From assembly GCA_021234155.1 (NCBI GenBank), contig JAJEKV010000051.1, positions 4,344,698 to 4,408,697 of the forward strand: a DNA stretch of 64,000 nt. The letters are read 5' to 3'. Both the position numbers and the translations under genes were made by a program. The notes beneath the pieces were generated by a model. It made no database searches, was not told the origin of the DNA, and saw only the letters and a program-made list of their open reading frames with translations. Shown here one piece after another: positions 14,479 to 46,985 of this stretch (its first letter is position 1; each line of letters opens with the position of its first letter). The DNA comes from Isoetes taiwanensis (lineage: Eukaryota > Streptophyta > Lycopodiopsida > Isoetales > Isoetaceae).

Positions 14479-15048
14479 TCAAATAGTGTTTAGCATTGAT
14501 AATGGGGATAGGTCGCTTTCACCACATTTATTAGTACCAGGTGGTCTAATGGTTTCGGGTGCGATGTGAATGTGGTCTAACTCCTGAAGTAGTGCTCGGA
14601 TGAGAACATCACGACGATCCTCCGCATACTTTGGCAAGAACCAGTTTCGGGTAATTTGCAAATGTGACAACAATACTTACATAATAAGTGTTAAAAACCA
14701 TTTGTTTGCAAGACAAAAGACATGAGACACTCACATTGGTAGTTTTACCACACACGATTGTGTCTACAAACTTCTGCATATAAGCTGCAACATAGAGGCC
14801 ACATGAATCCCCATCTTTCTGCAGTGGACACTTATGAATCTTCACAACTGGTGAAGGATTTTGTCCATGCTTCAAAAAAGTGGGACACTCGACACAACCA
14901 CGTGCCATAGTGAGGATGTGGAGCCTGCAAAAGACAAGATCAACTTTGTAGCAAATGAATGAAAGAAGCTGCTAACATGGTATCCAATCTACTCAATATT
15001 AATAAAAGGAGATGTGAAATACAAAATACCTCTTAAGTGCAAGCATAA
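14479..15048 (-). pseudogene. Ulp1-like (C48) cysteine protease, catalytic Cys half, severed by inversion
   Basis: Ulp1/SENP-type proteases process or remove SUMO-like modifiers; plants have many divergent copies. Exons on the minus strand: a partial exon ending at 15030 (MLALKR), 14924 to about 14735 or 14749, and a last exon ending at the TGA 14479-14481. The core CPLQKDGDSCGLYVAAYMQ holds the oxyanion Gln and the catalytic Cys of the D-S-C-G motif. The tail reads NWFLPKYAEDRRDVLI. Phases fit between the first two exons (AG plus G); the last intron boundary is ambiguous. The first exon stops at about 15048 against Copia sequence. The missing N-terminal half is found at 45204-46476 on the other strand. 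There is no ATG or upstream exon here, so this part cannot be expressed as a protease by itself. Confidence 0.85.
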
Positions 15049-15051
15049 CCT

Positions 15052-15617
15052 GCACATTGGCAAGCTCTCAAGCGCATATTGAGGTATTTGAAACAAACCC
15101 CTCGTTCAAGGATTTGTTATCATGGAAACCATCTAGGTCCTTTCACTTTAGAGGGCATGGTTGATGCTGACTATGCAGGGGATGTGGCTTTCCGTAAATC
15201 ACGCACAGGCTTCATTTTTAAGCTGCAAGGGGGAGTTGTGAGTTGGACAAGTAAAAAGCAGAAGGCTACTGCAGTAAGCACCTGTGAATCCGAATATATG
15301 GCAATATGTGCAGCTACAAATGAAGCCATCTGGCTCAGGAGATTGCTTAAGAGCATTGGTTGTGAACAGAGAAATCTGACGATCATCATGAATGACAACA
15401 GGGCAGCTATATGTCTTGTGAAGAATCCCAGCAACTTTACAAAGGCCAAACATATTGAGACACAATACCATTTTACCAGAGAAAAGGTGGAAGAAGGCAA
15501 AGTTAACCATAACGCATTTGGAAACCCACCTTATGACTGCTGATGTATTGACTAAACCATTACCAAGGAAGAGGTTCTCCGAATGTGTGCAAGAGATGGG
15601 CATGAGCTCAGTTTGAT
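15052..15617 (+). pseudogene. Copia RNase H with one frameshift
   Basis: RNase H of a Ty1/Copia polyprotein. Catalytic residues are visible: D in MVDADYAGD, E in STCESEYMA and D in MNDNRAAICLV. After KAKHIETQYHF the frame shifts by one base near 15500; the C-terminus TADVLTKPLPRKRF followed by a stop continues in the new frame. Confidence 0.85.
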
Positions 15618-15924
15618 ACTGGGGAATGCAGCTATGATCAGGTAAGGAGTTAGTTAGTGATGCATTTTGTTAAGTAGGTGAAGGTTTCTGCAGGAAATCA
15701 TTAAGAGAACATGGTGGCAGATGGGCTCTTTTGGTCTACTGTGGTAAAGTTTTAGGGGGGAGCATTTTTTCAGGAAAAAAAAAAAAAAATAGTTGAGTAG
15801 TGCAGGCATCATTAACAGAACTTGGTGGCAAAAGTTCTTTCTTGTATTGTTGCAACTGGAGTCTTTCTAGGAGTTTAGATTTAGTCAGAGATAATGTTGT
15901 TGTCAGGTCAACCTTGAGGGGGAG

Positions 15925-16119
15925 TGTTGGAAACTGGAAAGTATGGCAAGGTTGACGCTTGTCATATAGTTATGTGTTCCTAAATTACAGGACACGGTTG
16001 AAGATATCTCGGCATGCAGCCTGGCCCCTTTCTATATTAAGAATTCTGAGATGTATAAAGATAGATCTAATGAATGGAAACGCCACTTCTTCTGGTGTCA
16101 ATTTTTCTTAAGTGAATTA
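15925..16119 (+). repeat. 3' LTR of the split Copia element
   Basis: 195 bp starting TGTTGGAAACTGG and ending AAGTGAATTA, preceded by the polypurine tract TTGAGGGGGAG. Aligned with the LTR at 49013-49222 it differs by one substitution and one 15 bp gap. The element ends TG...TA rather than TG...CA; the end is fixed by the second copy, where the primer binding site starts directly after the same bases. Confidence 0.9.
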
Positions 16120-16744
16120 AATTCACTGGGGTTACAATCCATAATCATAACCATTTCTTGCCCGAAAGCATTTGAGAGTTAAGCCCCCCGGGTTTTGTTC
16201 GGTTACTAAAGTCTAATGGAATCAAATGCCAGAGCTAAGATCAAATTTTATGCTGATGAAATCAAACCCTGAATTGAAGCTTCAAAACCGAAAATAACAA
16301 AGTAATTACCTGGTTTATGCAGGAGTTCACAAAATGCCAAAAGCTTTCAGGCCCAGAGGCTTCAATGGCTTTCTCCGCAGAGCACAAGCAGCGCTACCCC
16401 CACAGCAGGGCCTGGTATTGGAAATCATAGAGGCAAATGTAGACCAGGGCTTACACAAGGCCCCCAAAAAAAGATAGTTATCAGTTTTATAATTTACTTT
16501 TTGTATTAAACCACTAAAATAAACTAATGTTACTAAGTGGGTTAATGTGTTGAATAACCATAGGCAGTTAAAGAGTGTAGTTTGCATTTAAGGTTTTTTA
16601 ACGTGGTATATTCATGTTGTAAATATCTATAGCTTTTCATTGTGGTTTGTTGCTATAGTTTTTTGCCATGGTTCTTCCTTGGTTTGTTGTTATGTGACAT
16701 GTGGGTGAATTAATAGTTTTATCTTTTAGTTTTCAATAGTATAT
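16120..16744. other. No assignable gene
   Basis: AT-rich sequence between the Copia LTR and the first foldback element; no family recognised on either strand. Confidence 0.4.
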
Positions 16745-17073
16745 GTTATTCCAAGATCTGGACCGTACATAGCGATCCTCGTTTGTGGGGTATGCATGTA
16801 CAAGTTTTTGTATACTGTATATTAAGGTTTGCAAAATACTATAAGGTTTGAGAGAATGTACTTAATGGTGTTAATTTTGTACATGTATTGTAAATATATT
16901 TTTGGAGCTCTCGCTGCCCTACGTAACCCCCCGTGTGAATATGCACCCAAACCAAAGGGGGTTTAAGGGGGATTTTAATTAAAATGTGTTAAATGCAATG
17001 GTTTGTGTTAATAATATTAATGGTAGTTGTGTGTTGATTGTTATATTAAAAAAAAATTTGGGCCCTTCGGGCC
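16745..17073. mobile_element. Foldback/MITE composite, copy 1 (one arm)
   Basis: Central MITE sequence in reverse orientation (about 16745-16935), ending GCTCTCGCTGCCCTACG then CCCCCCGTGTGAATA, followed by the outer arm that starts GCACCCAAACCAAAGG and ends in the palindrome GGGCCCTTCGGGCCC at about 17073. The left arm is missing. Confidence 0.75.
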
Positions 17074-18971
17074 CTAACTAACGCAAACATAAGTAAATGT
17101 TATGGGCCTAAATATTAATTACTAAAAATCAAATGAGCAAATGCCACAGAAAATATTATGGGAACAAATGCGAGGAAAAGCATGTCTGAAGAAAATTGAA
17201 GAAAATTGAAAGGTGTAGAATGTAAGAACAACCAATCCTATGAACAGAGCAATAGAAATAAGGAATTGAAGTAGTATGATACAGATTCAGAAATATGTTG
17301 TTGCTAGTCTCTTCAACAATTTGGGATTTAGAAAGAAATCACACAAACATCAATCTTTTGCTAGTATAGGCCATTGCAACTCCACAAGAAACCATTAATT
17401 TGGCAGTTAAGCCAAACAGTACAAAAAAGAGCAATTGGACAGTACAAAAAAGAGCAATTGGAATGTATTGGCCACAATATTCTCTGGAACTTTGACATAA
17501 AATATCCTGAATGATGGAGTAAACCAAAACCCTTGTGATGTACCAATAAGTTCTAACTTGCTTGCCGGATACCTGCCGGTTGTTATTGGTGCTTCTTGAC
17601 CTCTTCAATCTGCTTCTGCAAGATCTAACACGGATGAACCAAAGTTATCATTATGAATAGATTTGGCAAGAAGAAATAACAGTGTGACAGAACATGGTTA
17701 GAGAATGATCAGACCAGCATATTGAGTCATCTTGAAAGCCAAATCTACTGCATTGTGCTACAATAAAGCTACAATAAAGCTACAATAAAGCTTAAGAAAG
17801 TAAATGCAAAAAATCCCTGCTATGACAGCCAGGATTCACAGAATTCCAGCTACAATAAGACATAGAGATATGCCAACACATTTGTAGAGCAAGTTTAGAG
17901 AGGACCAGCATAAGAAGACATGTTTTTTCACCCTTGCAAGGTGCTTGTCTATACTTGTCGCGCACCTTCAAATGAATAAGTAGCTCATTAGCTTTCTTTC
18001 GCATCGAAGTTACTTAATTTTAGTACACTAGTCGCATCTTGTTCATAAGCCAATTGAAGCCCGGCCCGGAAAGTGCCACAGTCTACATCTACTTTTTGTT
18101 TCTTCGGCGCTCTATCAGCTTTTACCTTACAATCGCATAACAAATGTACTTAAGATTTTTGCTTGCCTTTATTATGCAAAGAATACAAATCAGAGATGTC
18201 ACATATCTAGCATCATGAAACTAAATTTCGGATGTGGTCGGGTCAGCCGTAGCTAGGCGAGTTTTGATTTATAACCAGTAGTGAAACTTTGGTCTAAAAC
18301 CTACTTAGGAATCAAAGAGCATAATCCGTCGCGAATTGTACCGAGAAATCAACGGCAAAGAACATACACACAAGGTGCCTTGCGTAGAATTCATCAAAGA
18401 TTATCTTGTGCATGTTCTCGCAATCGGCGGGATGAGATAAAAGTCCAAATGAACATAAGATCACGCTACCCGGAAAGGCATTCCACCAAAATTCGAGATC
18501 CACAAAAGAAGACGACAAATTTCAAAAACTTTACAGGGAATCATAACGTCTTTGCTTCTATGTCTGGAGAAGGTATTGACAGACCCACAAAGAACACAAG
18601 TCCATGCCCATCGATCGAAGTCGCCAAAGACCATTAATGTAAGCCCAAAGAGCTCTCACAACGGGGAAGAAGGTGCCCACCTTTACCTTGAAGAGCTGGA
18701 TTACCCCTTTCGTCCAAAGCTGCAAGAGGAGTAACGGAAACTCCCCATGGCAAACCTGATGCTTCTTGCATCTCTGAATTTGCTGGGCATTTTCCTAATG
18801 CTAGCCTTACCCAATCTCATCTCTTCTGGACTGAAGAGCAAGCCTCGATTATGGCATATAGAAAATCTCTTCCACCTAGCAACCCTAAAAAAAGCAGACC
18901 AAACCCTAATCCACACAAAAGCCTTCACCACAGGATTTGCCCTCTTTTCTAAAATCAACGGCTAACAAAAG
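17074..18971. other. No confidently assignable gene
   Basis: Several short frames without recognisable family features. On the minus strand near 18110-18010 there is a hydrophilic frame (APKKQKVDVD, then FRAGLQLAYEQDA) and near 18004-17940 MRKKANELLIHLKVRDKYRQ; these might be exons but no family or consistent splicing could be shown. On the plus strand 18747-18965 is a 72-codon frame with a hydrophobic start (LGIFLMLALPNL), possibly by chance. Confidence 0.3.
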
Positions 18972-19352
18972 GGTGCACTCTAGAAATACTATTTAGTACA
19001 CCTAGATGAATACGGCCACCAAATCATATGAAAACCTTAGAGAAAACAGTACAAAAACACAAAAAAACCCCCTGTTATAATGCTACATATTCATATTTTG
19101 AATTAGAAAAGGGATGTTAGTTTTGTAACGAAACTAAGACATGTCATTCGTAAACCAATAGTAGTTGTAGCTTCAAGGAATGTGCAATTCATGGTGGTTG
19201 TCCAATGAAACTATTGTTGTTCTCCAGGACAAATATATAGCATAATAACAGGGGGTTTTCTTTGTGTTTTTGTACGCTTTTCACTAAGGTTTTCCTATGA
19301 TTTCGTGATGTATTCAAATGGATGTACTAATGCGTACATCTAGAGTGCACCA
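18972..19352. mobile_element. MITE with about 120 bp terminal inverted repeats
   Basis: The left end GGTGCACTCTAGA is mirrored by CTAGAGTGCACC at the right, and the inner part of the left arm (CCCCCTGTTATAATGCTACA) is mirrored by AGCATAATAACAGGGGG near 19236. Arms are about 120 bp with scattered mismatches; no coding capacity. The right arm type recurs alone at about 20817-20935, 23735-23855 and 25213-25335. Confidence 0.75.
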
Positions 19353-20816
19353 TTTCTGAGCCATTGATTTTAGCCTTTTTTTTCAATGGTCAACAACCAA
19401 TGGCTCACAACAAAAGCCCTTTTTTTGTGCGTGTGGTGCATAATGGGCACATGAAGGGCCATTGATTTTAGCCTTTTCTTTCAATGGTCAACAACCAATG
19501 GCTCACAACAAAAGCCCTCTTTTTGTGTGTGTGGTGCATAATGGGCACATGAAGGGCTTGAAGGGCGCATGTAGTGCAGTTTCCCGCTGGCAACACATTT
19601 CTTATCATAACTTTTGATCCAAAGCTCTGTTTGAGATGATTTTTATTGCCTTGGAAAGCTCTCTCCGAGATCTTTTTGATAATGTATGATATGGATATGT
19701 TTGGTTAAGTTATCTATGCTAAAACAACAATTTTTCGGCCGGGTTTGGTAGGCTTTCACATCCTACCAGCTGATTAATATAGGATTGCGTTATTGGATAT
19801 TGTTTTATGGCTCATTCCGAATGAAGCTTGCAAAAAATTACCATGCATTTTTAGATTTTGAGGCAGTTATTAAGCAAATTCCAAGGCTTCTAGATCCTTG
19901 TGCTAACAAGCAGAAAAGTTTTCCACTTTGGTTTCTCACCACAAGAATCCATGGAGGCCAAAGGCTGCTGTTAAATTCTAGTTGAAAAATGTTTGTGTAT
20001 GGGTGTTGCAAACTTTATGACTTTCAACAAAAAAAAAAAACTTTATGACTTTCAGAAGAATAATGGGATCAATCTGCTCTATCTTTATGATAACTTTTAC
20101 TTATGTTCTATTTGTTTTATTGTGATCAAATTCAAAAGCTACAGGTGATGAAAGCCTCAAATGAATTCTAGTTTTTTTCTGGTTTAAATTCTAAAATTTT
20201 TGTCACACCGGAGGGGGGCCCTAAGGTCACCTTTGGTCGAGAAGGGCCAAAAAACTTTTTTTGCAACACAAACCATTAACATCCAACATATAAAAATTAA
20301 ATCCCCCAACACATAACAACCATTGACATTAACAACCAACACATAACTACCATTGACATTAATTAACACAACCATTGGGTCCAACACATTTAAATTAAAA
20401 TCCCCCTTAAACCCTCTTTGGTTTGGTCCCCCAACACATAACAACCAACACATAACAACCATTGACATTAACAACCAACACATAACTACCATTGACGTTA
20501 ATTAACACAACCATTGAGTCCAACACATTTAAATTAAAATCCCCCTTAAACCCCCTTTGGTTTGGGTGCATATTCACACGGGGGGTGACGTAGGGCAGTG
20601 AGAGCCCTCATAATTGTATTTTGCACGTACGAAATCAACACCATATAGTATTCCGCTTGAAATCTTACAGTATTTTGCGAATCTTGTTATACAGTATAGC
20701 AAATTTTGTGCATATCCCGCAAACGAGGAACTTTACGTACGGTGTAGATTAAGAAATAAGGGGTGAATATGCCTATCCAACATCTCTCGTTGCCCGGAGT
20801 CACCCCGTGTGAATAT
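19229..20816 (+). repeat. 1.4-1.6 kb direct repeat, copy A
   Basis: Starts with the MITE right arm (GCATAATAACAGGGGG at 19236), continues through TTTCAATGGTCAACAACCAA (present twice in this copy), GGATTGCG and CATGGAGGCCAAAGGC, and runs into foldback sequence. In this copy only, 19785-19985 stays open ([20 protein letters not shown]). Function unknown; the same stretch has stops in the other copies. Confidence 0.85.
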
Positions 20817-20817
20817 G
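20212..20817. mobile_element. Foldback/MITE composite, copy 2
   Basis: Left arm 20212-20569 contains short direct repeats of CAACACATAACAACCATTG and ends GGTTTGGGTGCA. The central MITE 20570-20817 runs from TATTCACACGGGGGGTGACG to CACCCCGTGTGAATA. The right outer arm is replaced by the 120 bp MITE arm starting at 20818. Minus-strand peptides with NVNGSYVLVVNVNG are translations of the arm repeats, not genes. Confidence 0.8.
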
Positions 20818-20935
20818 TAGCATAATAACAGGGGGTTTTTTTTGTATTTTTGTACAGTTTTTGCTATGGTTTTCATATGATTTGATGGGCGTATTGCGCG
20901 AGGTGTACTAATCAGTATATCTAGAGTGTTCCTAG

Positions 20936-21707
20936 TATTTTTTTGATTAAAAATCCATTTCTCCATGGTTTACCCCTAACTTTCTTTTGTGAAAAGTCGA
21001 GCGCATGCAAAACTCGATTCTTCTATTCTAGGGTTTCTTTGTTCTTTTATTCATTCCTTTTTGTTTTTTCGTTCCGTCTCGTCTTTGGAATCAAGGATTC
21101 ATTTGCTCCAAGCTATGCTTTGAAATGCCTATGGCGGTCACCTTCTTCCGAATCGTGTACTGGCACCTATGACGGTCATGGAAATACAGAAGATCTTCTT
21201 CCGAATCGTGTACTGGCACAGAATCGTGTATTGTTGAAGGCATGGGCATTTCGTACCGTTTACTTCAGTGATTAGGTTTGAGCTTCTTTTCTCCTCTAAG
21301 TGCACATGGCATTTTCCAGGTAAATTTAATTCATGCAGATGATTCTGAAATGCCGAAATGTTCCTCAGATGCACCACCAGGAAAAGCCCTGGTTTCAAGG
21401 AAAGTAGGTGAAGAAAGAGCAATGTCTTAGAAGCCATCTGTGATAAAGCAAGAAAGAGTTTTCTCTATTGAAACAAGGCCAATTCACTATATTCCAAATC
21501 CCGCAACAAGTGTCTGGAGCTAAAACATCATTGGCGAAGTGTTCACCATTCCTGGAATTGACTCAAGTTTCCATCCTCCAGCAACAAAACTAGTAGAAAT
21601 TGAACCGTGGCATCTGATCTTGTGCTGATAATTCCAAGCTCCCAGTTAATTTCCTTCCTTTGATGTTTTGGTCAATCAAAACTTGGAGTTCAGGACTTGG
21701 GTTTTAT
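20936..21707. other. No assignable gene
   Basis: Contains a short duplicated phrase CTTCCGAATCGTGTACTGGCAC (first 20 bases at about 21144 and 21198) but no recognisable coding sequence. Confidence 0.4.
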
Positions 21708-22740
21708 GTGTAGTTGGAACTAGATACCGTATGTGCTTCTTGTTTGCCTTTGTCATTTTCCACAAGGCCCATTAGCAATAAGCTGAAATTCCTCTTATCT
21801 CCACAAGGCCCATTAGCAATAAGCTAAAATTCCTCTTATCTATGAATGCAACGGCAATTGGGCAATGGTAAGAATGATAAGGAATTTATGACAGGGAATT
21901 TTATGTAGAGTAGTTGGCAGTGGTTAAGAATGATAGAGAATATAAAGAAAGGGCGGCTGAGCCCTGAGTCATGCAGTCCCTTTGAGAACATTAAACTGGC
22001 ATCTGCAGTTGTGGCTTCCAATAAAACCGATATGCAGCTCACAGATTACCTTTGCATTCCGACCTTATATTTGGAAGCGGTAAACTTTATATACTATGCT
22101 GCTTTAAGAAATGATGGCAAGACCAAATGATGTAATCATAATCACAGGTATGCATTTTTAAAAATGCCAGGGCTTCATTTTTTTTAATGTATGATCTCTA
22201 TTTTATTTACTTATTCTGGTTATGCATTTGCCAATTTAGTGATGTATGATCTTTGTCTCATTTTATTTGTGCTATACATTCACGAAACATGACTCTGGGC
22301 AAAGCTATTGCACATGATCTGTCTAAGAACCAATACACTATTAGCTGGTTTTCTGTGTAGTTGGAACTGGATACCGTATGTGCTTCTTGTTTGCCTTTAT
22401 CATTTTCCACAAGGCCCATTAGCAATAAGCTGAAATTCCTCTTATTTTCACAAGGCCCATTAGCAATAAGCTAAAATTCCTCTTATCCGTGGAATGCAAA
22501 GGCGGTTGGGCAATGGTGAGAATGATAAGGAATTTTATGACAGGGAACTTTATGTAGAGTAGTTGGCAGTGGTTAAGAATGATAGAGAATATAAAGAAAG
22601 GGCAGCTGAGCCCTGAGTCATGAAGAATTGTTGCAGTCCCTTTGAAAACATTATGTCGGGCATCCGCAAATCGTGGCTTCCAATAAAACTGATATGCAGC
22701 TCACGGATTACCTTTACCTTACCTTTACCTTGAAGCCTAC
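21708..22740. repeat. Direct duplication with a 647 bp offset
   Basis: GTGTAGTTGGAACT at 21708 recurs at 22355, and about 370-380 bp downstream of each start are alignable. Inside each copy, CACAAGGCCCATTAGCAATA is itself tandemly duplicated. No gene recognised. Confidence 0.85.
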
Positions 22741-23407
22741 AGACTTGGTTGTCTTCTTCTTCACTCAATCGGGAAAACTAGCAGTGATCAATAAGGGATA
22801 TGAAATATTGTTCCGACAAAAACATGTTCTATATTGAACTAGTAAAAACAAGGGCAATCAGAGATATTCTAATGCAGAGTTCAAGTTATTTAGAAGTGAG
22901 ACCATTATTGCCATCTTCATTTTTGGGCTTAGGAGATAATGAAGAAGAAATGAGAATATCAGACAAAAGGTACCTAGAGTGGTTAGTTAAATAAAAAACA
23001 ATGTCAGTATTACATGTTTCATTTGGATCATGAGGCTATTGCGGGATTTTTAAGCCATTGTGGTTGGAATCCGACGTTCGATTCCCCAAGGGGGGTTTTA
23101 CCGCTTGTATATTTTTTGCGAATGTGTGTAAGAGATGCTTCTACAATATTGTAAATGTGTTAAGATGTCCTACCATAAAAACCATGTTGTGTTCGGGCCC
23201 AAAAATACACATTACCTCATTTAACTCATTTAATACAGTCTCTCTCATTGTTTCTAACATTTAGTATAGTTTATAGTTCCTAAATTTCTTTTATAATATC
23301 ATTATAATTTAAACGACCTGTTTATATGCAATACCTTTTCTAAGGCGCTGAATGTGCATTGCTCTTTGGATTTGCCCAAGCTTGATTCCTGGGGAGTTTG
23401 CTTTGTG
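22741..23407. other. No assignable gene
   Basis: AT-rich spacer; no gene, RNA or element recognised. Confidence 0.4.
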
Positions 23408-23740
23408 AGGGCCCGAAGGGCCCAAAAAAAAATTTCATATAACAAACAACACATATCTACTATTAATATTAATTAACACAAACCATTGCATTTAACACAT
23501 TCAAATTAAAATCCCCCTAAAACCCCCTTTGGTTTGGGTGCATATTCACACGGGGGGTGACTCCGGGCATCGAGAGCTGTTGGATAGGCATATTCACCCT
23601 TTATTCCTTAATCTACACCGTACATAAAATTCCTCGTTTGTGGGGTATCCATGTACAAAATTTGCTATACTGTATAACAAGATTTACAAAGTACTATAAG
23701 ATTTGAGGTAAGATTTGAGATTTGAATGTGTGAATATGTG
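23408..23740. mobile_element. Foldback/MITE composite, copy 3
   Basis: Begins with the palindrome GGGCCCGAAGGGCCC at about 23409, short left arm to 23549, then the central MITE in the orientation opposite to copies 2, 4 and 5 (GGTGACTCCGGGCATCGAGA at the left end). Its right TIR is decayed (ends GTGTGAATATG). Confidence 0.75.
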
Positions 23741-25099
23741 GCATAATAACAGGGGGTTTTCTTTGTGTTTTTGTACGCGTTTTACTAAGGTTTTCCTATA
23801 ATTTCGTGATGTATTCAAATGGATGTATTAATGCGTACATCTAGAGTGCACCATTTCTGAGCCATTGATTTTAGCCTTTTTTTTTCCAATGGTCAACAAC
23901 CAATGACTCACAACAAAAGCCCTTTTTTTGTGCGTGTGGTGCATAATGGTCAACAACCAATGGCTCACAACAAAAGCCCTCTTTTTGTGTGTGTGGTGCA
24001 CAATGGGCACATGAAGGGCTTGAAGGGCGCATGTAGTGCAGTTTCCCCGCCGACAACACATTTCTTATCATAACTTTTGATTTAGAGCTCTGTTTGAGAT
24101 GATTTTTATTGCGTTGGAAAGCTCTCTCTCTGGGATCTTTTTGATAGTGTATGATATGGATATGTTTGGTTAAGATATCTATGCTAAAACAGCAATTTTT
24201 TGGCCGGATTTGGTAGGCTTTCACATCCTACCAGCTGATTAATACAGGATTGCGCTATTGGATATTGTTTTATGGCTCATTCCGAATGAAGCTTGCAAAA
24301 AATTACCATGCATTTTTAGATTTTGAGGCGGTTATTAAGCAAATTCCAAGGCTTCTAGATCCTTGTGCTAACAAGCAGAAAAGTTTCCCACTTTAGTTTC
24401 TCACCACAAGAATCCATGGAGGCCAAAGGCTGCTGTTAAATTCCAGTTCAAAAATGTTTGTGTATGGGTGTTGGAAACTTTATGACTTTCAGAAAAATGG
24501 GATCAATCTGCTCTATCTTTATGGTAACTTTTACTTATGTTCTATTTGTTTTATTGTGATGAAATTCAAAAGCTACAGGTGATGAAAGCCTCAAATGAAT
24601 TCTAGTTTTTTTCTGGTTTGAATTCTAAAATTTTTGTCACACCTAAGTCCCTAAGGCCCCCGGGGCCAAAATTTTTTTTTTGCAACACAAACCATTAACA
24701 TCCAACATATAAAAATTAAATCCCCCAACACATAACAACCATTGACATTAACAACCAACACATAACTACCATTGACATTAATTAACACAACCATTGGGTC
24801 CAACACATTTAAATTAAAATCCCCCTTAAACCCCCTTTGGTTTGGGTGCATATTCACACGGGGGGTGACGTAGGGCAGCGAGAGCCCTCATAATTGTATT
24901 TTGCACATACAAAATCAACACCATATAGTATTCCGCTTGAAATCTTATACTATTTTGCGAATCTTGTTATATAGTATGGCAAATTTTGTACTTGCATACC
25001 CCACAAACGAGGAACTTTACGTACGGTGTAGATTAAGGAATAAGGGGTGAATATGCCTATCCAACAGCTCTCGTTGCCCGGAGTCACCCCCGTATGAAT
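23735..25099 (+). repeat. 1.4-1.6 kb direct repeat, copy B
   Basis: Starts GCATAATAACAGGGGG (23741) and matches copy A throughout, including CATGGAGGCCAAAGGC, with substitutions and one lost internal duplication. Same orientation as A and C. Confidence 0.85.
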
Positions 25100-25212
25100 A
25101 TGCACCCAAACGAAAGGGGGTTTAAGGGGGATTTTAATTTAAATGTATTGGACCCAATGGTTGTGTTAATTAATGTCAATGGTAGTTATGTGTTCGTTGT
25201 TAATGTCAATGG
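24647..25212. mobile_element. Foldback/MITE composite, copy 4, both arms present
   Basis: Left arm from about 24650 (GGCCCCCGGGGCC) to 24849, central MITE 24850-25099 bounded by TATTCACACGGGGGGTGACG and GAGTCACCCCCGTATGAATA, then right arm GCACCCAAACGAAAGGGGG to about 25212, where the MITE arm of repeat copy C begins. The two outer arms are inverted relative to each other. Confidence 0.8.
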
Positions 25213-32807: not shown

Positions 32808-32939
32808 CTGCCCATAGCACAGTCTACATTTCCAGATTTTCCTTTACCAGAAAGGGGCCTTTTATGGTGCATGCTCGAATAGCCCAGTTCCCAGATCCAC
32901 AGTTGAATAGTCAATACATGTGAAAAGAAAAGTATCCAC

Positions 32940-36901: not shown

Positions 36902-37029
36902 TCAAGTTGACAAACCACTATAGCATGTGGTTTTCTGCTATCAAATAAATTCTTGTACAAAAAACCATGTCCATCATAGTTTTTAGATTATCTAATACCA
37001 TTTTATTATGGTAGTTCATTTTTGGGTGC

Positions 37030-38410
37030 CTTGTGTTACAACATCTAGCCAATGGAAAAACGCAGGACCTGGATGGAATGCAGGCAGAGCTGCTCAAATG
37101 GGTGGGACCATCCATAGTATCGGTACTAGCCACCATGGTCAACGGGGCATTACAGGATGGTTTTCTCCCGCAAAGGACCATTAGCAGAGTTATCCCCATA
37201 TACGAGGTAGGTGATCCAAACTGCTCAGCCAATTATCAAATCATAAAGTTCAGCTCGATATTTGTGAAAGTGTTGGCCGGGTTTCTCAAGCAGCAGTTGA
37301 CAATATGGATAGGGGCAGCAGGCGTGCGGGCTCTCGCACATGCAGGGTTCAGGCTGGGCACTCAACTCTTGATCATATCTTCACACTGCAGACCCTGGTT
37401 GAGGACAACAGGGACCATCAGCAAGATCTCTATTGCTGCTTTGTGGACTTCACAAAGGCTTTTGACACAGTGCCTGAGGAAAAACTATTGGTAAGATTGC
37501 AACAGCTGGGGGTCCCCGTAGACCTACAAAATGTTGTGTACAGACTGTAAGAGACATGCTTATGCTGGTTGCAGCATAGAGGCCAGCCATTCAATAGCAA
37601 TATCGGGTCCATCAGGGATGCCCTCTTTCTTCTACATTGTTTGAACTATACATTGATCAGTTGGAGAGATGGCTTGCTGAAAATGGGGGCGACAGAGCTC
37701 ATCTCTTGCACCATATTGTCAGGTAGCTAACATATGCTCATGATTTGGACCTCCCGACTTAGACTTCGGTAGACATGCAGTGCCATCTCGATGCCATGGA
37801 CACATTTTGCCAAGCGACTGATGTGCGTGTCAATTTGGCCAAGATTAAGGTGGTCCTCACATCGCATCAGCCAAGGGCTCCCTCCTTCAGCTATCGCATG
37901 CAAAGTGTGGAAGTGGCACCCGCATGTAAATACTTAGGAGTGGAGTTCCCCTCTGCTATGCACTGGGAACTACTAGCCACTACATCTACAGGCAACAACG
38001 GGCTGAAAGGGGCTTTATGCAATACAAAACAACAGTCATAGAGTGGAGCTATATGATTGGGGCCATCGGCCGCACCTCTTCAAGGTATTGGTGGAGCCTA
38101 TCCTTTTGTACGGGGTCAATGTCTAGGGCCCCATGGCCTCCTTCGCTATCTGAAATGACTTGGAGCAAGTGCAGAAAGCCTCATTGACTCGAGCACTAGG
38201 GGTGAAGTCCACGGTGCCATAATCCTATTGCAAGAGACAAGATTCTTGCCCCTTCAGAGGGCGGCCCTTAATCATCACATTGTCTACTTTCAGAAAAAGC
38301 GAGCTTAGTGGCTCGCCAGATATGCAGGAGCACAGGTGCATACAAGTACAAAAAGAAGCAGACCGCTATAGCTCGAGGCAATACCTAGATGCTTGCTTCC
38401 TCCACAAGCT
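37030..38410 (+). pseudogene. LINE reverse transcriptase remnant
   Basis: Reads DGMQAELLKW, SRVIPIYEVGDPNCSANY, then after a frame change GHSTLDHIFTLQTLVEDNRD and CCFVDFTKAFDTVPEEKLL, which is the first catalytic Asp block. The second catalytic block is YAHDLDL near 37728 where active LINEs have Y-A-D-D, so a catalytic Asp is lost. Later pieces (CKYLGVEF; LVEPILLYGV) are the C-terminal part. Stops and frameshifts throughout. The endonuclease part is absent here; a separate endonuclease relic lies at 10.4-11.2 kb. Confidence 0.8.
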
Positions 38411-39260
38411 CTGGGATGCATAGTACCTTAAAGGCATGCACTTGTGTGGTGCCAAGAGAGGTTTATCCATGAAATAACTTCAATTGCCTCATATGTCAGT
38501 TGCTCCAATTCTAGTATGCAAGCCTTTGGATGTTATATTAATACTAAGCCCATAGAAACAAAGATGATGAATTTTTCACTTGTTGACTTCTTCCAAGCAA
38601 AAATTTGGAGTAAAGGATAATCAATAGCAAGTACATGTAGAGTAAGATTCAAATGAGATGCCCGAGGTCGAGATGCTCCATGTTTGCAGTAAAAAAAGTC
38701 CATATCCATATGCAATGACTTGTGTTTGTGCCCTCGTCTCCTCAATCCTTCTTAGTTACTTGGCCAGAAGAGAAATCTCCTTAGCAAGGGCAAGAGCTTT
38801 CTTTTCACTAGCATTTCTCGATCACTGATGTATGCTATAGCTTTTCTCCAGAACTCCTCGTGACCAAAACTCTCATATTACGACAAAAAACTTTTCCTGA
38901 ACAAACCTCGCCCGTTTGGAGCCCGCCAATCAACTTCCGCCCACACACCACGGATCCCAGATCCCCCTCGTTGATCAATATGATGCTGCTCCCATCCGGT
39001 GTTTCTACACACCACAGATGGTTGATCTTTCTCAGCTGATTTCCCCTGAGTTAATAATCGTCCACCTGCACAGTAGGCCCAATTCGACCACCAGAAGACA
39101 TGACCTTCTCTGTGATCACCACCGCAGGTTCATGCTGCCAAATCGGAAGCTACTATCAAGTCTCAATCCAATCAGATGTCTCTAGCTATAGAACCAGCCA
39201 CGGGGGGTTCACCTTTATCACATGAGCATATGCCACCTGCGTGCTTAAGGTGAGAAGAGA
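38411..39260. other. No assignable gene
   Basis: No coding or element signature recognised between the LINE relic and the Gypsy 3' region. Confidence 0.35.
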
Positions 39261-40104
39261 CACCCCTATATACGTACGCAAAAGTGTTGGAAAAAACCCC
39301 TTCCGTGGATAAAACACACTAGAATGTCAGTAAGAGGGGGATTTAAACCCCTAGTATACGTACGAAAACGTCGAGAAAAAACCCCCTTCCATACACTCAC
39401 TAGGTTTATACGGGTCTTCTGTGTGAATCCCCCATGGAACCAGCTTCTTTCTCCAAACCCAATTCCGGCAGCCCCCCAGATGAATTCATTCTCCAGGCTT
39501 TATAATGTAGCCTCCGGAGTTCACCACAGTCTTCTTTAGTCCAAATTCGACCTGCCAAGCCTTAGATTTGATCCGAATTGCAGCTTTCACCCACGACTCT
39601 CAGATCTGCCATTCCGGGTCTGATACAGATTCGTCCGGCTGTTCAATAACATGTTTTTTTCCCATCAAACCATTTAATGCCACGTGTCCATATAACCATT
39701 ATATTTTAACATAGCTAACTTTTATTCTTTTATATTAATGTTTCAACCCCTAGTGCTAACATTCATACTACTAACATTAACGAATAACGTTAACCATACA
39801 TTAATATAAATGACAGATCTCGCAAGCTCTTCTTCCGCACTAATATTATTCGATAATATTAGTGCCCCTAGCGACCCATTATCCATCCCTATCAACCATT
39901 GTCTCTTATTCCGCATTCCGTCACCATAGACTGATTACAGCCAACATGGCCCATTAATCACAACTGTCTGGCAATTGCAACTAACATTAACCCCATGCTC
40001 ATGGACATCCGTCAAGGGTCCGATTCCGGCTATACCCTTGGGAGCACCTGTAACATTCCTCCCCCTCCTTTTGGACCTTGTCCTCAAGGTTGATCTTTTA
40101 GACG

Positions 40105-40479
40105 AGGGAACTGCTACACAAATTCCTCCGTCTCCCAGGTGGCATCCTCAGGAGACTGGTCCTGCCACTGAACCAGATGTTCTACCACATCCCTATTGCG
40201 CAGCCGCCGAACTCTTTTATCCAAAAGACATTCTGGCATTACAGAGGAGTTTAAGACAATTGGTACACTTCGCGGACTAACCACATTAGAGGTATCCAGT
40301 ATAGCTCTTTTCAGCTGACTTACGTGAAACACAGAATCGATTCCTATTTCCTGCAGTAAGTTCAACTCGTACGCTGTTTTCTCGATCCTTTTAGTAATCT
40401 TAAAAGGTCCAGCATACCGCAGAGTAAGTTTGGGCACCCGACCTTTAGTCAAAGGCCACAAACTGTTCATTCTTAACAA
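40105..40479 (-). pseudogene. Gypsy integrase C-terminus and chromodomain
   Basis: Continues the polyprotein in another frame: RYAGPFKITKRIEKTAYELN, FHVSQLKRAI, then a chromodomain LRNRDVVEHLVQWQDQSPED with ATWETEEFV. Chromodomains at this position mark the chromovirus branch of Ty3/Gypsy and are thought to guide insertion to particular chromatin. Confidence 0.9.
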
Positions 40480-40496
40480 GGAAGGATAAACAACCC

Positions 40497-41501
40497 TTAG
40501 GAAAATATAATCACCTTTCGCATAAAAGATATCACATCTATGATGATTAGCGGACGCTTACTTGCATTGCTGCAAGATTGCATCCATATCATGGAGCATA
40601 TGTACTGCAACTTCGGTTCGGAGGTATTTATGTATACTGAATAAGACCTTGGATTTTGACCCATCATAGCCACAAAGGCAGTCATCCGAATTCCCGTATG
40701 ATGGCTATTATTGTAGGCAAACTCTAGATAGGGTAGATAATCTTCCCACCTGGATTGCTTCTCATGGACAAAGCTTCGCAACATATCCTCTAGGATCATA
40801 TTTATGCGCTCGGTTTGCCCGTCCGTCTGTGGATGATTTCCACTACTCATGTACAATCGGATCCTCAATCCTTTCATGAGATCTCTCCAGAAGTGACCCG
40901 TGAACTTAGTATCCCGATCACTTACAATGGACAAGGGAAGTCCGAAAGTTGGAAATATGTGTTGCATATAGGCAACTACTACGTCATGTCCCCTAGCCTC
41001 CCCTTTTAATGCTATGAACTTAGCATACTTGGTTAACAGATCCACTACCACCAAAATTTGAATATGTTGCCTAGCAATTCTAGGTAATGCGACTATAAAG
41101 TCTATACTCACGCTCTCCCAGCGTTCATTTGGTATAGGGAAGGGTTGTAATAATCCCAGGGCTTTCCCATGATCCGTCTTCACAGCTTGACACACCAAGT
41201 AGTGACTTACCAAGTCCTTGACTTGATCTTGCAACTCTGGCCAGTAGTAGAACCTTTTAACCAATTCATACGTTTTCCATTCACCTCCATGCCCAGCTTG
41301 TGGAGTATCATGATGCTCATGCAGAATTAACTCCCTAAGATTTCCACTCGAAGGAACATAAATCCTTCCTTTGTAAAAATAAAAATAGTCCTGTGCTTTG
41401 GGGCACGTGACTAACACCAGCCCCCCGTAACCCAGCCTCATGCCCGGGAACACCAACAACCTAATGCCCCCTCGCATGACGAGCTTTTTTGGGAAGACCA
41501 A
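40497..41501 (-). pseudogene. Gypsy integrase
   Basis: A long open frame (about 330 codons) with the zinc finger HHDTPQAGHGGEWKTYELVK and the DDE core: Asp in VVVDLLTKYAKF, Asp in SIVSDRDTKFTGHFW, Glu in HPQTDGQTERINMILED. In the zinc finger the first Cys of the usual C-x2-C is Tyr (YLVCQAVK). Near the 3' end a stop and a frame change separate it from the chromodomain. Confidence 0.9.
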
Positions 41502-41639
41502 GTGGTTGGACCATCACGAAAATGGCCCAAGCAGATGGCAAGGATAAGGGAGAAGCCTCTTCCACGAGGAAGGATGCATGGACGAAGGCCCAATCAATAA
41601 GGCCGGCCTGACAGACTGTTGATAGTTGTTTAGGCCCCA

Positions 41640-42285
41640 CGGTAAATTAGACATTGACAGATACTTTGAAACATCTCGTGGCGAGAATTGAAGGTAACAA
41701 TATCGAAATTACATGCTTCACAGAAGAGGTGCAGTCCTCAATGCCCCACGTGCTAAAAGGCAATTGGAGACCCGCACCCAGCAAATGGAAGATGACATCT
41801 AGTTCGCAACACTTCGAGAGGCAGTAGGACAAGAAGGATCTTGCCAACCTACGTGCTCGCACGGAATTGTCCATCATCATGGAAGCCATAACACAGGATA
41901 GGCAATGGGCCGAGCAGGAGACGATAGCAACCATCTCTCGCCTTCGAAAAGAAGTTGAGAAGGCTACCAGCATGGCAAGAGGTGTCCAGGCGACCTTTGT
42001 GGAGAGCCAGTCACAGCTGAAAGCCCTTCAGAGTAAGATCGACTCATGGGAAGTGCCCTCATCAGCAGTGAACCCTGCCCTGAACACCTTCTCGTTGGAA
42101 CTCGAGCACAACTCGCTGCTCGAGACCAGGCGGTGCAGAAGCTGCAGGCGGCTATCATGAGCAAGGCAATGGCCTCCATGCAGAGGCTCATGAACAACTG
42201 CAACGATGCATGCATGAATTGTCAAGGCAACAACAATTCTCGAGGGAGTCATTTATGTAATAAGGGATATACCACCTGTGTTCAT
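41640..42285 (+). pseudogene. Frameshifted coiled-coil protein relic, family unknown
   Basis: Plus-strand frames at 41764-42060 (ISRLRKEVEKATSMARGVQA, SQSQLKALQSKID) and 42091-42250 (AQLAARDQAVQKLQAAIMSK, then NNCNDACMNCQGN) are strongly helical and look like one protein broken by a frameshift near 42050 and at least one stop at 41803. The C-x2-C tail could bind metal. It might be a plant gene or the gag-like part of an element. Confidence 0.45.
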
Positions 42286-43379
42286 GTGATTGTAAGAAAA
42301 CCCCTAGAATGTTTGTTTTTAGCTAAAAGTTCCTCACATACAGTGTTTAGATTTCCTTTATTTGCAGCCCCTCTCGGCTTTGAATGTCATATTATCATTT
42401 ATGATCCCCCCCATGTTTGGATTTCATTATATTCGTCGCCCCTGTCGATTTTATACAACATTTCATTATTGAAAAACCCCTCATACACAATTGAATCTGC
42501 CATTAAAAAGTTCCTCTTGTACAATTTTATGTAGCCTTTAATGTTGCATCCATGTTCATACCTTTTTTATGATTGACAACATAGCATACTAATCAAGAAA
42601 ATTGTGATAATTGATGCTAGCTAGGTTACTGTTTTGAATAACCCTATGTAATGTGCAGTCTATAAACTTGCCATGGCTGGGAAAAAATCATGCTTCTGTT
42701 GGATGACAATCATTGGTCACAATATCGAGATGTAAAACTATATCCTAAACTTCTTCTTCATTAATTAAGGAAAAACATACAAATTTATTTGTTAGCCTTC
42801 GAGAATAGGCATGCTAAAGCAAAGCAAAGTTAAAATAGTTATAAAGATCCAAAGTGTTCACTTTTTTTTTCTTGCCTCCAAAAATAGAGAATCCAAGTCT
42901 TCAGTGAGCACGAAAATAAGGAATCTTGAGCTTTCTTGAACAAAATAGGTGTTCTGAGAATATGTAGGTCAATATTATCCAAGTAGATCTTTGATCTTCG
43001 GCACCACCAAAATGATGAGAAAAAAGAGGGGAAAACAAGGCAGGAGTGGGTAAAAGAAAGCTAGGGTGTCTAAAAAAAATGCCCTTACATTATGTATAAT
43101 GTAGGGCATGTAGGCACCCGTTTTTGTTATTTTTTTGAATTTTAGTTAGTTGGGATATGTAATCATTAGGAGTAGCCACGTCAGCAATTCAAAATTATGA
43201 GTGGCAGTGGCAACTAGAACGGACCTTCATTGCAATTTTTCGGAGGGAGATTGCGAAGTGTTTCCTGTTTAGGAAAAAAAATTGCCGCCGTTCCAATTTT
43301 TTGTGTTTGTGAGTGACCAACGAAGTAATTCGACTGTAACTTATTCTTCTTCCTCGAAATCCTTGCCCAAATCCAAGCA
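42286..43379. other. No gene seen; possible promoter region of the next locus
   Basis: AT-rich stretch with A and T runs. A short inverted motif CCTTACATTATG / CATAATGTAGGG-like lies near 43083-43107. Nothing else can be supported. Confidence 0.35.
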
Positions 43380-44642
43380 ATGGACACCTTTGCCTCCCAG
43401 AAGTCACCCAGATTAAACAAGAATTTGAAAATAGTCGATTCTAGCAAGAAAGCCGAAAAAAACAAGAGGAAGGTTCAAGCTTCTGAGGAACCAGGGCCAA
43501 AAAGAAGACTTATTTGTGAAGAACCCGCTGTTGTGGAAGCAAAGCATGTAAGATGTGTCAATGTAGATGAAATTTTTCCAGATTTACAACAGATAATGGA
43601 CGAGCAGTGGGGACCCAAAGACATACGGGGGTTCAAAGAATCTAGCGTGAAGCCAGAGTGGGCCGAGAACTTCTACAAACATTATGAAATTGTTTTTGGT
43701 AAGCGGGAGGTCACAAATCGCCATGTACCTGAGTACTTTGCTCGTGCATTTGCCCTTCAATTGACAGGTAAAAAAGTAGATTGGGATACTTTTAAAGTTT
43801 TGGCCAAAGATTTGGCAAAGGGAGGAGCAAAAGAATCTGCTATTACAGAAGAAATTGGGACCTCTAAATCCACATCCAAGGTTCCTAAATTTCAGCAAGG
43901 ATTTTACCCTAAGGAAGAGCTTGAATTTGCGTAAACTCACATTGCTGCGGCAAGTGTCATGAAGAGTTAATTAGCAAAGACATCCAAGGTTGAAGAACTG
44001 AAAATTCAGCAGCAGTTATTATGTGACAATATAAATAAGATTTCGTGAAGAAAGGATGCACATGAAGAGGACCTAGACATCAATAGTGTTCTCGACGACG
44101 CTAAAGCGTAAAGAGAGACATCAATAGGAGGTTGACCTTTTGATGAGGGATAGAACCAGAAGGAAGAAATGTTGAAGAGAATTCAGAGCCATTGGAGAAA
44201 GCCATTCGGGAAAAGGAGTTATGTGAAAAGAGGATTGCGGAACTTGAGGAGGCTCACAAAGTTCAGTTTGAGTGCTGCAGACGGCTTGATGATATGCATA
44301 AGTACATGATGCATTCCTGCAGCAATTCTCCTTCAGCCCAAAACAAGCTTAGTGACCTCTCCAGCTGAAGCAAAATTCATATCTATGCATGGATGTGTAT
44401 TTTGTAGTAATGGCTTTGCTAATAATGAACCTATCCTAGTTGCTCCATGCGAGCATTCATTTCATATCTTCTGTTTCTCATATTCTATTTCTGCTGGACT
44501 ATCCTGCCCAAGAGCATGCAAATGGGACGAAAACATTTCAAAGATCTTGGGTGTGTACACTGGAGGCAAGCAAGATTTTCATGATTTATGTTTAATTTGT
44601 CGCACCCGTGATTACCGCAATGTAGAATCCATTTACATGTAG
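43380..44642 (+). pseudogene. Basic N-terminal domain, coiled coil and RING-H2-like finger, broken
   Basis: ATG 43380 opens a 184-codon frame, lysine-rich at first (SKKAEKNKRKVQ), then a folded-looking part (WAENFYKHYEIVFGKREVTN, PEYFARAFALQLTGKKVDWD) and stops at 43932. The same frame continues as a coiled coil with several stops (KVEELKIQQQLLCDNINK) and then, after a frame change, KELCEKRIAELEEAHK. At 44352-44642 a Cys/His block C-V-F-C ... CEHSFHIFC ... CPRAC ... C-L-I-C resembles a RING-H2 finger, although the spacing of the last pair is unusual. I cannot name the family. It lies just upstream of the Ulp1-like exons on the same strand, and may be part of that gene or a separate neighbour. 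Confidence 0.5.
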
Positions 44643-45203
44643 AATCCATTTACATGTAGATTGCTTTGCACTTAAGGTTTTGCTACAAAGATGTAGGAGT
44701 GTATTGGTTATTTTATACTTATAGTTCCATGGCTTGCATGTCATACGATATGTGTTTCTTACATACATGTTGTACATTCACGATGTAGGGTCCTAGATGT
44801 AGAACTTAAATACATAAAATTAGGAGTTGTATATCGAGTTTTGTGGCGTAACATTTAGAGGTATTTTATGTAATGTCCGATGTGTACATGTGCATACATT
44901 GAGCACATTCATGTACATTACATGTACATTCCATCTAGATAAATAGTCATTTTACATGTGTATGTACTTAAAGTACTTCAATGTAGATCGATTCTAGTAA
45001 TATGTACCGCTATTGTTCAACGAATAGTTAGAGACCCATTAGTTTGAGACCCGATATCCGACCGTTATGTGATTTATTTTCGAGCTTCAAAGTGCCAAAA
45101 AAACCGAAAGCGTAAATTACACCACGATCGGTAGCTTGTTTTTCAAATTGTTTTGCATTGTGTCAGAGGAAGCAATTTCTTATTCTTGGTTCGGTTTTCA
45201 CAG
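44643..45203. other. Non-coding spacer
   Basis: AT-rich sequence with many TGTA/TACA-rich words (TGTACATG, ACATGTACAT); no coding signal. Confidence 0.4.
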
Positions 45204-46476
45204 TTTTGGAGGTTCCAAAGAAAATTGAGGTGCAAGATGTAGCCGAGGGAAAGAAAGCAGTGATTGAAGGAAAAAGCAAAATCACTATTCCTACGGTGAT
45301 ACAGGTTGAGGAGGCTGGCACTTCAGGTCTGCATGGTGACATTCCAGATTATGACGAGGAACTCGAGAGATTGAGGGAGCAGGCTAAGGCCACATCTTCA
45401 AAAGTAAAGGCAGCAGCAGAAAATGTGACTCCAAAGAAGAAGTCCACGCCTAAAAAGCCACAGAAGAAGACAATTAAAGCAGTAGAAACAGGTAAGAAAG
45501 CATTTTATTTCAGTGTACAGCAGCTGAGAAGTCCATGACATCCTATGTTTACAGGTCCTAATGAAGAGGAATCTTCCGAGCGCCAAGATCTAGAGCAGGA
45601 TACTCTTAAGTTTGTGTCAAATCTTGCTTCTGACATAGTAAAGGAGGCTGAATTTCATGACAATGAGAAATCAGGAGAGGTTGAAGACGAGGATTCTGGA
45701 CCTAATAAGAATCTGAGTGAGGAAACCAAAAAAGAAGGGAAGGAAATGGATACTGACTCCGAGAAAACAGTATCAGCAGAGCATAAGAATGATCTCTATA
45801 GGTAACTTGATCTACATATCTTACATTTTTTTTTACATCTAGTATCCAAGTTAAAAACTTTAAAATAATATGGATAGTAGTAGATGAATGTAGATGATTT
45901 GTGTAAATGTACTGGTCATTGAACCCAGACTGCAGTTCTGAATACAGGCCATATGATGCCTTGCTCAACCGAATGATGAAGCTCAAGAAGGCAAGGATTT
46001 TCCCAGGATCTTTGCCTGAAATGGAGTGTTATTTATTTGAACAAGATGTGTTGGACATGGATGTGGGAAAATTTTCCAACCGGCATGTGGATATGTATGC
46101 CAGGTACTGGACTTTGAACTTATTCATTTGTATATGGAAGTCAAGTTAGTAATTTTATCCTTTTCAACTTGTTATAGGTACCTGCAGCTCTGTGTTCCAG
46201 ATGATAAGAAGGCCGACGTCTGGTTCTTCCCACCGGACAGCTTCATGGAATTTGCAGCATACTGCAAAGCAAGCGAAAACGATAAATCTATGGCAGCCTC
46301 CGAGCGTGAAAGAGATATTGTAAAGGTAGCTCTTACAGGGATAAATTGGCTGAAGTGCAGATGGATCATGATTCCAATGCTATGTAGAGTTACTGAACAT
46401 CACACTTTGGCCATCTTCAACATGGCACTTACTAAGAGTAAGAACACCATCAACATTCAGATCTTCAATTCACACT
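45204..46476 (+). pseudogene. Ulp1-like (C48) cysteine protease, catalytic His half, severed by inversion
   Basis: Exons 45204-45491, 45555-45801, 45936-46103 and 46178 to about 46476, with matching phases at all three introns. The first two exons encode a charged, low-complexity linker (TPKKKSTPKKPQKK; EDEDSGPNKNLSEETKK). Exon three reads YRPYDALLNRMMKLKKARIF. The last holds the protease core: DVWFFPPDSFMEF, LKCRWIMIPMLCRVTEHHTL with the catalytic His in H-H-T-L-A-I-F, and NIQIFNSHS, where the family normally has Asp (D-S-L) and this copy has Asn. At about 46476 the sequence switches to Copia in the opposite strand. The Gln and Cys part is at 14479-15048 on the minus strand. Any transcript would now run antisense into the Copia element. 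Confidence 0.85.
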
Positions 46477-46985
46477 CCATGAATTGGCTAAGTGTAATAA
46501 CATTTTCTGAAAGTTCTGGCCTTGTACAGACCATAAAATGTAGAAGGGAGCCTATTACACTCCTATAGGGCACCCCAATTTTGCTATCCACCTCCTTGCA
46601 CTTTGGAGAACATGTTTCAAAAGATAAGCTAGAATGCACTGTTGGAGTACTTACGTGTCTGGCGGAGTGCATGTTGCACTTTGTTAAGAGAGACTCAACA
46701 GCCTTCCCTTGATGAATGGTGATGGTCTTATGCTCCTGATCTGCAAGAACATGAATATCCAAAAAATATTTCAGTGGCCCTAAGTCAGTCATGTGGAACC
46801 GAGCTGCCAAGGAAGTCTTAGTCTGCTGCATCAGCATGGTGGAATTGGAGGCAAGGATCAAATCATCGACATACAACACAATGATGAGAAATTGGGACCA
46901 AGCTGCTTTACATAGACATTCCAGTCTGCATCACTTCTGTCAAAGCCCAAGTTCGAGAAAAAGCTATGAATGGTCTTATACCATT
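46457..46985 (-). pseudogene. Copia reverse transcriptase C-terminal part
   Basis: After a jump from integrase, the reading NLGFDRSDADWNVYVKQLG, then (one-base frame change) VLYVDDLILASNS with the catalytic Y-V-D-D, FHMTDLGPLKYFLDIHV and YRSVIGSLLHFMVCTRPELS. The frame ends at the inversion breakpoint; translated residues beyond SQFM belong to the antisense of the protease gene. Confidence 0.9.

What the first reader, a model, noticed from the sequence alone, without database searches (positions are those of the whole stretch)
15040..46485. A single 31.4 kb inversion split both a protease gene and a Copia element
Seen directly: near 15,048 the minus-strand C-terminal half of a Ulp1-like gene abuts the plus-strand 3' half of a Copia element; near 46,476 the plus-strand N-terminal half of a Ulp1-like gene abuts the minus-strand 5' half of a Copia element. 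Flipping the segment between these points joins the two protease parts (catalytic His side to Gln/Cys side, with the family's normal spacing missing at most a few residues) and the two Copia halves (end of reverse transcriptase to start of RNase H). The two Copia LTRs are nearly identical and their outer flanks share the 5 bp duplication AATTC, which proves one insertion. Inference: inversion occurred after the Copia insertion, with one break in each of two adjacent genes. The breakpoints are in non-repeated DNA and show no long homology, which points to end-joining.
Basis: partly seen in the sequence, partly recalled or inferred. Interest (0 to 1): 0.9.

Follow-up and report, generated by a model that had tools for sequence, protein, structure and literature searches.

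The report
Small inversion that cut two transposons
A 31.4 kb piece of plant DNA, probably from a quillwort, was most likely flipped by ordinary break-and-rejoin repair that cut through two different transposons; it is a clean, well-resolved example of a known kind of event, and the supposed protease gene is itself part of a high-copy transposon.

Summary
The inversion is present in the assembly and can be placed to the base: breaks at 15046/15047 and 46471/46472, 31,425 bp flipped. Unbroken copies of both split elements in the same genome show that 22 bp were lost in one element and 4 bp in the other, with no microhomology or filler at either junction. This fits non-homologous end joining. 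A new third line agrees: the sequences outside the two Copia LTRs, one inside and one outside the inversion, belong to one copy of a dispersed repeat (4 of 4 copies fetched).

The 'protease gene' is not a host gene but part of a high-copy TIR transposon of about 8.8-9.1 kb with 4-bp target duplications, tentatively Sola-like, carrying Ulp1 and NIF-phosphatase genes; this copy lacks its 3' two-fifths. The breakpoints are in repeats, though unrelated ones. The AATTC duplication is weaker proof than claimed, because the host repeat lacks some 430-510 bp exactly there.

The genome matches the published size of Isoetes taiwanensis. Reads, sister genomes and alternative haplotypes could not be checked.

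The parts
15047..46471 (.). inverted segment, 31,425 bp
   Evidence: both ends defined by comparison with unbroken family copies
13018..15046 (-). TIR DNA transposon (Ulp1/NIF carrier), C-terminal Ulp1 and NIF-phosphatase part; this copy stops matching the family at 13018 and lacks the 3' two-fifths with the putative transposase ORFs and the 3' TIR
   Evidence: NIF PF03031 1.3e-17 in the C1029 copy
43048..46471 (+). same transposon, 5' part with N-terminal Ulp1 part; 24-bp 5' TIR at 43048-43071
   Evidence: sharp 5' end in 5 of 6 copies fetched (the sixth, C974, matched only from 45315); TIR repeated inverted at the 3' end of C1029 and C1042
15047..16119 (+). Copia 3' part with 3' LTR 15925-16119
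46472..49222 (-). Copia 5' part with 5' LTR 49013-49222, gag (PF14223), GAG-pre-integrase and integrase core; about 1.2 kb missing inside at 46984-46989
16120..16124 (+). AATTC next to the 3' LTR (candidate target-site duplication)
49223..49227 (-). AATTC next to the 5' LTR (candidate target-site duplication)
16134..16378 (+). host repeat, flank inside the inversion (match extends to 16116 in two of four copies)
   Evidence: 89-93% to L048-L051
49224..49313 (-). host repeat, flank outside the inversion
   Evidence: 78-79% to the same four copies, same strand and order once un-flipped

Best explanation
Shown: parts of two transposons of different families are joined reciprocally. Un-flipped, both elements lie on the minus strand about 27 kb apart and each is whole across its break except for 22 bp in the Ulp1/NIF-carrying TIR transposon and 4 bp in the Copia element. 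Both new joins are blunt, with no shared or added bases. Inferred: two double-strand breaks on one chromosome were repaired together by non-homologous end joining with slight trimming, after both elements had inserted. The near-identical LTRs suggest a recent Copia insertion, hence a younger inversion. No recognised host gene is cut; both cut elements are defective copies today.
For: Base-level reciprocal fit at both joins against unbroken family copies. All three Copia pieces have their highest percent identity with the same relative, C1107. The two Ulp1 parts carry similar shares of letters seen in no other copy covering that column (7 of 1469 = 0.48%, and 9 of 1597 = 0.56%; columns with at least 8 of 14 copies) and share rare letters most with the same two copies, L033 and L025 (rank agreement 0.61, p 0.02 for 14 copies; 0.64, p 0.06 for the 9 with full coverage). 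The host repeat lies on both sides of the Copia in the un-flipped order in 4 of 4 fetched copies, and these two flanks are the only parts of the 64 kb window that match those four loci at E 1e-3 with the low-complexity filter on. No homology between the breakpoint neighbourhoods beyond shuffle level. No N in the window.
Against: No raw reads, sister genome or un-inverted haplotype was available, so an assembly fault is not formally excluded. The window copy of the host repeat lacks some 430-510 bp at the Copia site, so the flanks are not contiguous in the four copies seen. In the Copia 3' part C423 and C1053 have more identical bases (829 and 828) than C1107 (806, over a shorter match), though at lower percent identity. 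The closest Ulp1-element copy by identity differs between the halves: L020 is first of 14 for the C part (94.3%) but among the lower ones for the N part (91.2%); and the share of columns where the window differs from the commonest letter is 2.9% in the N part against 3.8% in the C part. The 3' end and target duplication of the Ulp1 element could not be checked because that end is missing from the window.
Confidence: 0.9

Rival explanations
1. Assembly artefact: a contig or gap-filled stretch was placed in the wrong orientation, or chimeric reads made false joins.
For: If the genome is I. taiwanensis it was built from Nanopore reads with miniasm, scaffolded with Bionano and gap-filled (passages read), steps that can misplace segments; both breaks lie in repeats.
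Against: No N in the window. Two reciprocal joins at unrelated sequences with 22 and 4 bp lost; assembler errors normally fall at shared sequence, and one chimeric read gives one false join, not two matching ones (inference).
Confidence: 0.06
2. Replication-based template switching (MMBIR/FoSTeS-like) rather than two breaks and end joining.
For: Small losses at both ends; the Copia copy also has a 1.2 kb deletion with a 6-base filler, so other kinds of repair have acted here.
Against: No microhomology and no inserted bases at either inversion junction; a simple balanced inversion.
Confidence: 0.05
3. Alternative (reversed-ends) transposition by the TIR transposon.
For: One of the cut elements is a TIR transposon.
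Against: Such inversions have transposon termini and matching target duplications at the breakpoints (PMC8225341, passages read). Here both breaks are internal: about 3.4 kb inside one element and inside the coding part of the other.
Confidence: 0.01
4. Ectopic (homologous) recombination between inverted repeats.
For: The window is rich in repeats.
Against: Longest shared word around the breaks is 9 bases, as in shuffles; joins are blunt with bases lost.
Confidence: 0.01
5. No inversion: four independent fragments of two transposon families happen to lie here.
For: Both families have other copies; the best-matching copy of the Ulp1 element is not the same for its two parts.
Against: Pieces are complementary to within 22 and 4 bp, in the right orientation, with LTRs differing by 1 substitution in 195 and one host repeat on both outer sides.
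Confidence: 0.01

Closest known systems
Simple inversions repaired by non-homologous end joining between two double-strand breaks
   Same: blunt joins, small losses, no homology between breakpoints
   Different: read from two split transposons within a single genome instead of by comparison with another genome
Rearrangements in maize centromere 10 (PMC4806543; passages read)
   Same: partial and recombinant retrotransposons and inversions in one plant genome, dated with LTR elements and ascribed to double-strand break repair
   Different: there many repairs appeared to use microhomology and inversions were reconstructed with sorghum synteny; here one inversion is resolved at both ends without microhomology
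Sola DNA transposons (described in PMC10741241, and PMC3627910; passages read)
   Same: 4-bp target duplications, TIRs, 2-9 kb typical size, reported from a moss
   Different: Sola transposase not demonstrated here; this family also carries Ulp1 and NIF phosphatase genes
Ginger1 transposons with Ulp1 (PMC2836005; passages read)
   Same: 4-bp target duplication and a Ulp1 domain
   Different: Ginger1 ends begin TGTNR, duplicate CCGG/CCGT and encode a Gypsy-type integrase; this one begins GGGTAAAA, duplicated TACA and ATAA, and no integrase domain was found in the five ORF pieces scanned

Membership tests
End-joining inversion | reciprocal joins of the same two breaks | tested here: met
End-joining inversion | no extended homology at the joins, only small losses or additions | tested here: met
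   0 bases shared, 22 and 4 bp lost; longest common word within the shuffle range
End-joining inversion | un-inverted ancestral order seen in relatives or another haplotype | not tested
   no related genome held; own-genome junction searches did not complete
Copia LTR retrotransposon | gag, integrase ahead of reverse transcriptase/RNase H, LTR pair | tested here: met
   PF14223, PF00665, PF13976, PF22936; LTRs; the 3' ORF itself hit no Pfam family, so the RT-end/RNase H position rests on family alignment and recalled motifs
Copia LTR retrotransposon | 5-bp target duplication | tested here: inconclusive
   AATTC on both sides, but the host repeat lacks 430-510 bp at the site
Sola superfamily | 4-bp target duplication | tested here: met
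   TACA and ATAA in 2 of 2 copies with both ends read
Sola superfamily | terminal inverted repeats | tested here: met
   24 bp perfect in 2 of 2 copies with both ends read
Sola superfamily | Sola-type DDD transposase | tested here: inconclusive
   the three convergent-strand ORFs scanned had no Pfam match; one of them had a single, unnamed protein relative
Ginger1 | TGTNR ends and CCGG/CCGT duplications | tested here: not met
   ends GGGTAAAA, duplications TACA/ATAA (definition from PMC2836005)
Alternative transposition inversion | transposon ends with matching duplications at the breakpoints | tested here: not met
   both breaks internal (definition from PMC8225341)

The most novel reading that the evidence does not exclude
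The split 'protease gene' belongs to an undescribed, high-copy lineage of 4-bp-target TIR transposons that pairs a Ulp1 SUMO-type peptidase with a NIF/FCP1-like phosphatase on one strand and an unassigned transposase on the other; and the inversion is young enough that un-inverted chromosomes may still segregate in the species.
Probability: 0.3. Interest if true: 0.5.

Novelty: new member of a known kind. Interest (0 to 1): 0.3.

Why it matters
It shows that a balanced inversion with end-joining signatures can be read to the base from one genome alone, when it cuts two elements whose unbroken relatives are still in that genome. Applied genome-wide, pairs of reciprocally split transposons would give rates and repair signatures of small inversions in lineages such as lycophytes without a sister genome. 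It also warns that a 'split gene' may be a split transposon.

Tried and rejected
Rejected: host protease gene (the element is high-copy with TIRs); homologous recombination between inverted repeats (no homology); alternative transposition (breaks internal); Ginger (ends and duplications differ); a target-duplication test for the Ulp1 element (its 3' end is absent from the window: only one TIR match with up to 6 edits in 64 kb).

Led nowhere: the protein search with one putative transposase ORF gave 1 relative of 23 candidates, unnamed. The window's own Ulp1 pieces hit no Pfam family at E 0.1 except one weak RRP36 match below its cut-off; the Ulp1 filing rests on the C1029 copy. In the listings I saw, no title or abstract start names this inversion: searches (9 listed of 10; 15 listed of 28; 4; 2; 10 listed of 25; 5 listed of 28) was for the species. 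'Inversion' and 'DNA transposon' each occur 0 times in the main text of PMC8566536. Supplements were not looked at.

Not done: copy number of the Ulp1 element is a first-look figure (2337 candidates, 40 scored, 48 matches with the window itself included), and the query included about 1 kb of unrelated flank, so it is only an indication. Of six copies of the host repeat whose match fell in the first 263 bases, four were fetched. No haplotype or junction-uniqueness search was answered. 18 of the 21 ORFs (one of them cut short) were scanned against Pfam.

Full report
Where the window comes from. The own genome has 1,658,258,908 bases in 1110 contigs and the window lies at C1058:4344698-4408697. 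The published Isoetes taiwanensis assembly has 1658.30 Mb in 204 scaffolds plus 909 contigs (PMC8566536, passages read). I infer that this is the species; no name was given by the tools. That assembly was made from Nanopore reads, polished, scaffolded with Bionano maps, gap-filled and purged of haplotigs (passages read).

The joins. The two parts of the Ulp1-bearing element end at 46471 and 15046, the two parts of the Copia element start at 46472 and 15047. Unbroken copies in the same genome give the state before the break. Of 14 copies of the Ulp1 element, 10 have exactly 22 bp between the two parts and 4 have small indels there; of 5 Copia copies examined, 4 have exactly 4 bp and one, a more distant copy, has small indels. 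Neither junction shares a base between the two elements and none has been added. The longest word shared between the 400 bases around each break is 9 on either strand, where 200 shuffles gave 7 to 11.

Same elements on both sides. For Copia, the relative C1107 has the highest percent identity for all three separately searched pieces: 96.3, 96.3 and 95.4%, against 88-94% for the others (5, 5 and 4 copies compared; C1045 had no match to the 3' part in the stretch held). For the 3' part C423 and C1053 have somewhat more identical bases over a longer match. For the Ulp1 element, letters seen in no other copy covering the column (at least 8 of 14) make up 0.48% of the N part and 0.56% of the C part, and rare letters are shared most with the same two copies (rank agreement 0.61 for 14 copies, p 0.02; 0.64, p 0.06, for the 9 copies that cover the whole N part). 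Against this, the copy with the highest identity is not the same for the two parts, and the share of columns that differ from the commonest letter is 2.9% in the N and 3.8% in the C part; the family is nearly star-like, so this test is weak either way. The LTRs differ by 1 substitution in 195 positions and by a 15-base stretch that is present, with small variations, in the relatives' LTRs shown and missing from the 3' LTR here.

An independent third line. The sequence just inside the inversion beyond the 3' LTR (from 16116 or 16134 to 16378) belongs to a dispersed repeat. I fetched four copies chosen only by that match, of six listed there with it. All four also contain the sequence just outside the inversion beyond the 5' LTR (49224-49313), on the strand and in the order expected if the segment is turned back. 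With the low-complexity filter on, nothing else in the 64 kb matches them at E 1e-3; with the filter off, 39 bases of the in-between part of one copy match 49819-49857 weakly (79%, E 5e-4), which lies on the outer side too. In these copies the two stretches are some 430-510 bp apart, and those bases are missing in the window exactly at the Copia. Either the Copia entered a copy that already lacked them, with AATTC as a normal duplication, or the insertion removed them and AATTC is partly chance. Both readings leave one Copia insertion in one repeat copy, now split by the inversion.

What the protease gene is. Its C-terminal half matches very many places (2337 first-look candidates, 40 scored, 48 matches including the window itself). 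The element starts at 43048 with GGGTAAAAGAAAGCTAGGGTGTCT, sharp in 5 of the 6 copies fetched, which have different flanks; the sixth matched only from 45315. Two copies read to both ends are 8769 and 9071 bp with the same 24 bases inverted at the other end and with 4-bp duplications TACA and ATAA. The C1029 copy encodes a Ulp1-type peptidase (PF02902, 9.2e-4, 19.5 bits against a cut-off of 20.7) and a NIF-type phosphatase (PF03031, 1.3e-17) on one strand, and ORFs without any Pfam match on the other. Size, TIR and 4-bp duplication agree with Sola as described in PMC10741241 (passages read), but the transposase was not identified, so the filing is tentative. Ginger1, which can carry Ulp1, has other ends and targets (PMC2836005, passages read). 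The window copy stops matching at 13018 and has no second TIR.

The Copia copy. Besides the break it lacks 1.2 kb that five relatives have, between the integrase core and the remaining end of the reverse transcriptase region, with a few bases of filler. Whether that loss came before or after the inversion is not known. One substitution in 195 LTR positions suggests an insertion within the last few hundred thousand years at substitution rates I recall for seed plants (about 0.6-1.3e-8 per site and year; no rate for Isoetes was looked up), with a very wide error. The inversion is younger than that insertion.

Order and distance. Turned back, the Ulp1 element's 5' end and the Copia 3' LTR are about 27 kb apart on the same strand (arithmetic), so the breaks were not in adjacent genes. 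The Pfam scans of 18 of 21 window ORFs of at least 120 aa found transposon domains and one legume-lectin match at 60824-61270, outside the inversion, but no host gene cut; a spliced gene with short exons could escape such a scan.

Mechanism. Two double-strand breaks joined by end joining with slight trimming is the simplest account. Homologous recombination lacks homology; alternative transposition would put transposon ends at the breaks (PMC8225341, passages read); template switching usually leaves microhomology or inserts (recalled). An assembly fault cannot be excluded without reads, but the two joins are reciprocal, contain no N, and fall at unrelated sequences with bases lost.

Verdict. 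Confirmed observation, mostly sound interpretation, ordinary class of event with unusually clear anatomy. The Ulp1/NIF transposon may deserve its own study.

Noticed in passing
L034-L047 (C983, C1029, C1042 and others); window 43048-46471 and 13018-15046: High-copy TIR transposon of 8.8-9.1 kb with 4-bp target duplications that carries Ulp1 and NIF-phosphatase genes and convergent ORFs without Pfam matches; superfamily not settled.
   Followed up: partly
window 46984-46989: Internal deletion of about 1.2 kb in the Copia copy with a 6-base filler, relative to five relatives.
   Followed up: partly
window 16120 and 49223; L048-L051: The repeat that hosts the Copia lacks some 430-510 bp in the window exactly at the insertion site, which makes the 5-bp duplication ambiguous.
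   Followed up: partly
window 13000-13036: The Ulp1 transposon copy ends here next to a 14-bp tandem repeat and a short hairpin-like sequence; what replaced its 3' two-fifths was not worked out.
   Followed up: no
window 33025-36916: Four tandem copies of a unit of about 970 bp, mostly 96-100% alike with some less similar stretches, inside the inverted segment.
   Followed up: no
window 40114-41501: Minus-strand Ty3/Gypsy-type integrase with a chromodomain ORF downstream (PF17921, PF00665, PF24626, PF00385).
   Followed up: no
window 60824-61270: ORF with a partial legume-lectin domain match (PF00139, 5.9e-08), outside the inversion.
   Followed up: no
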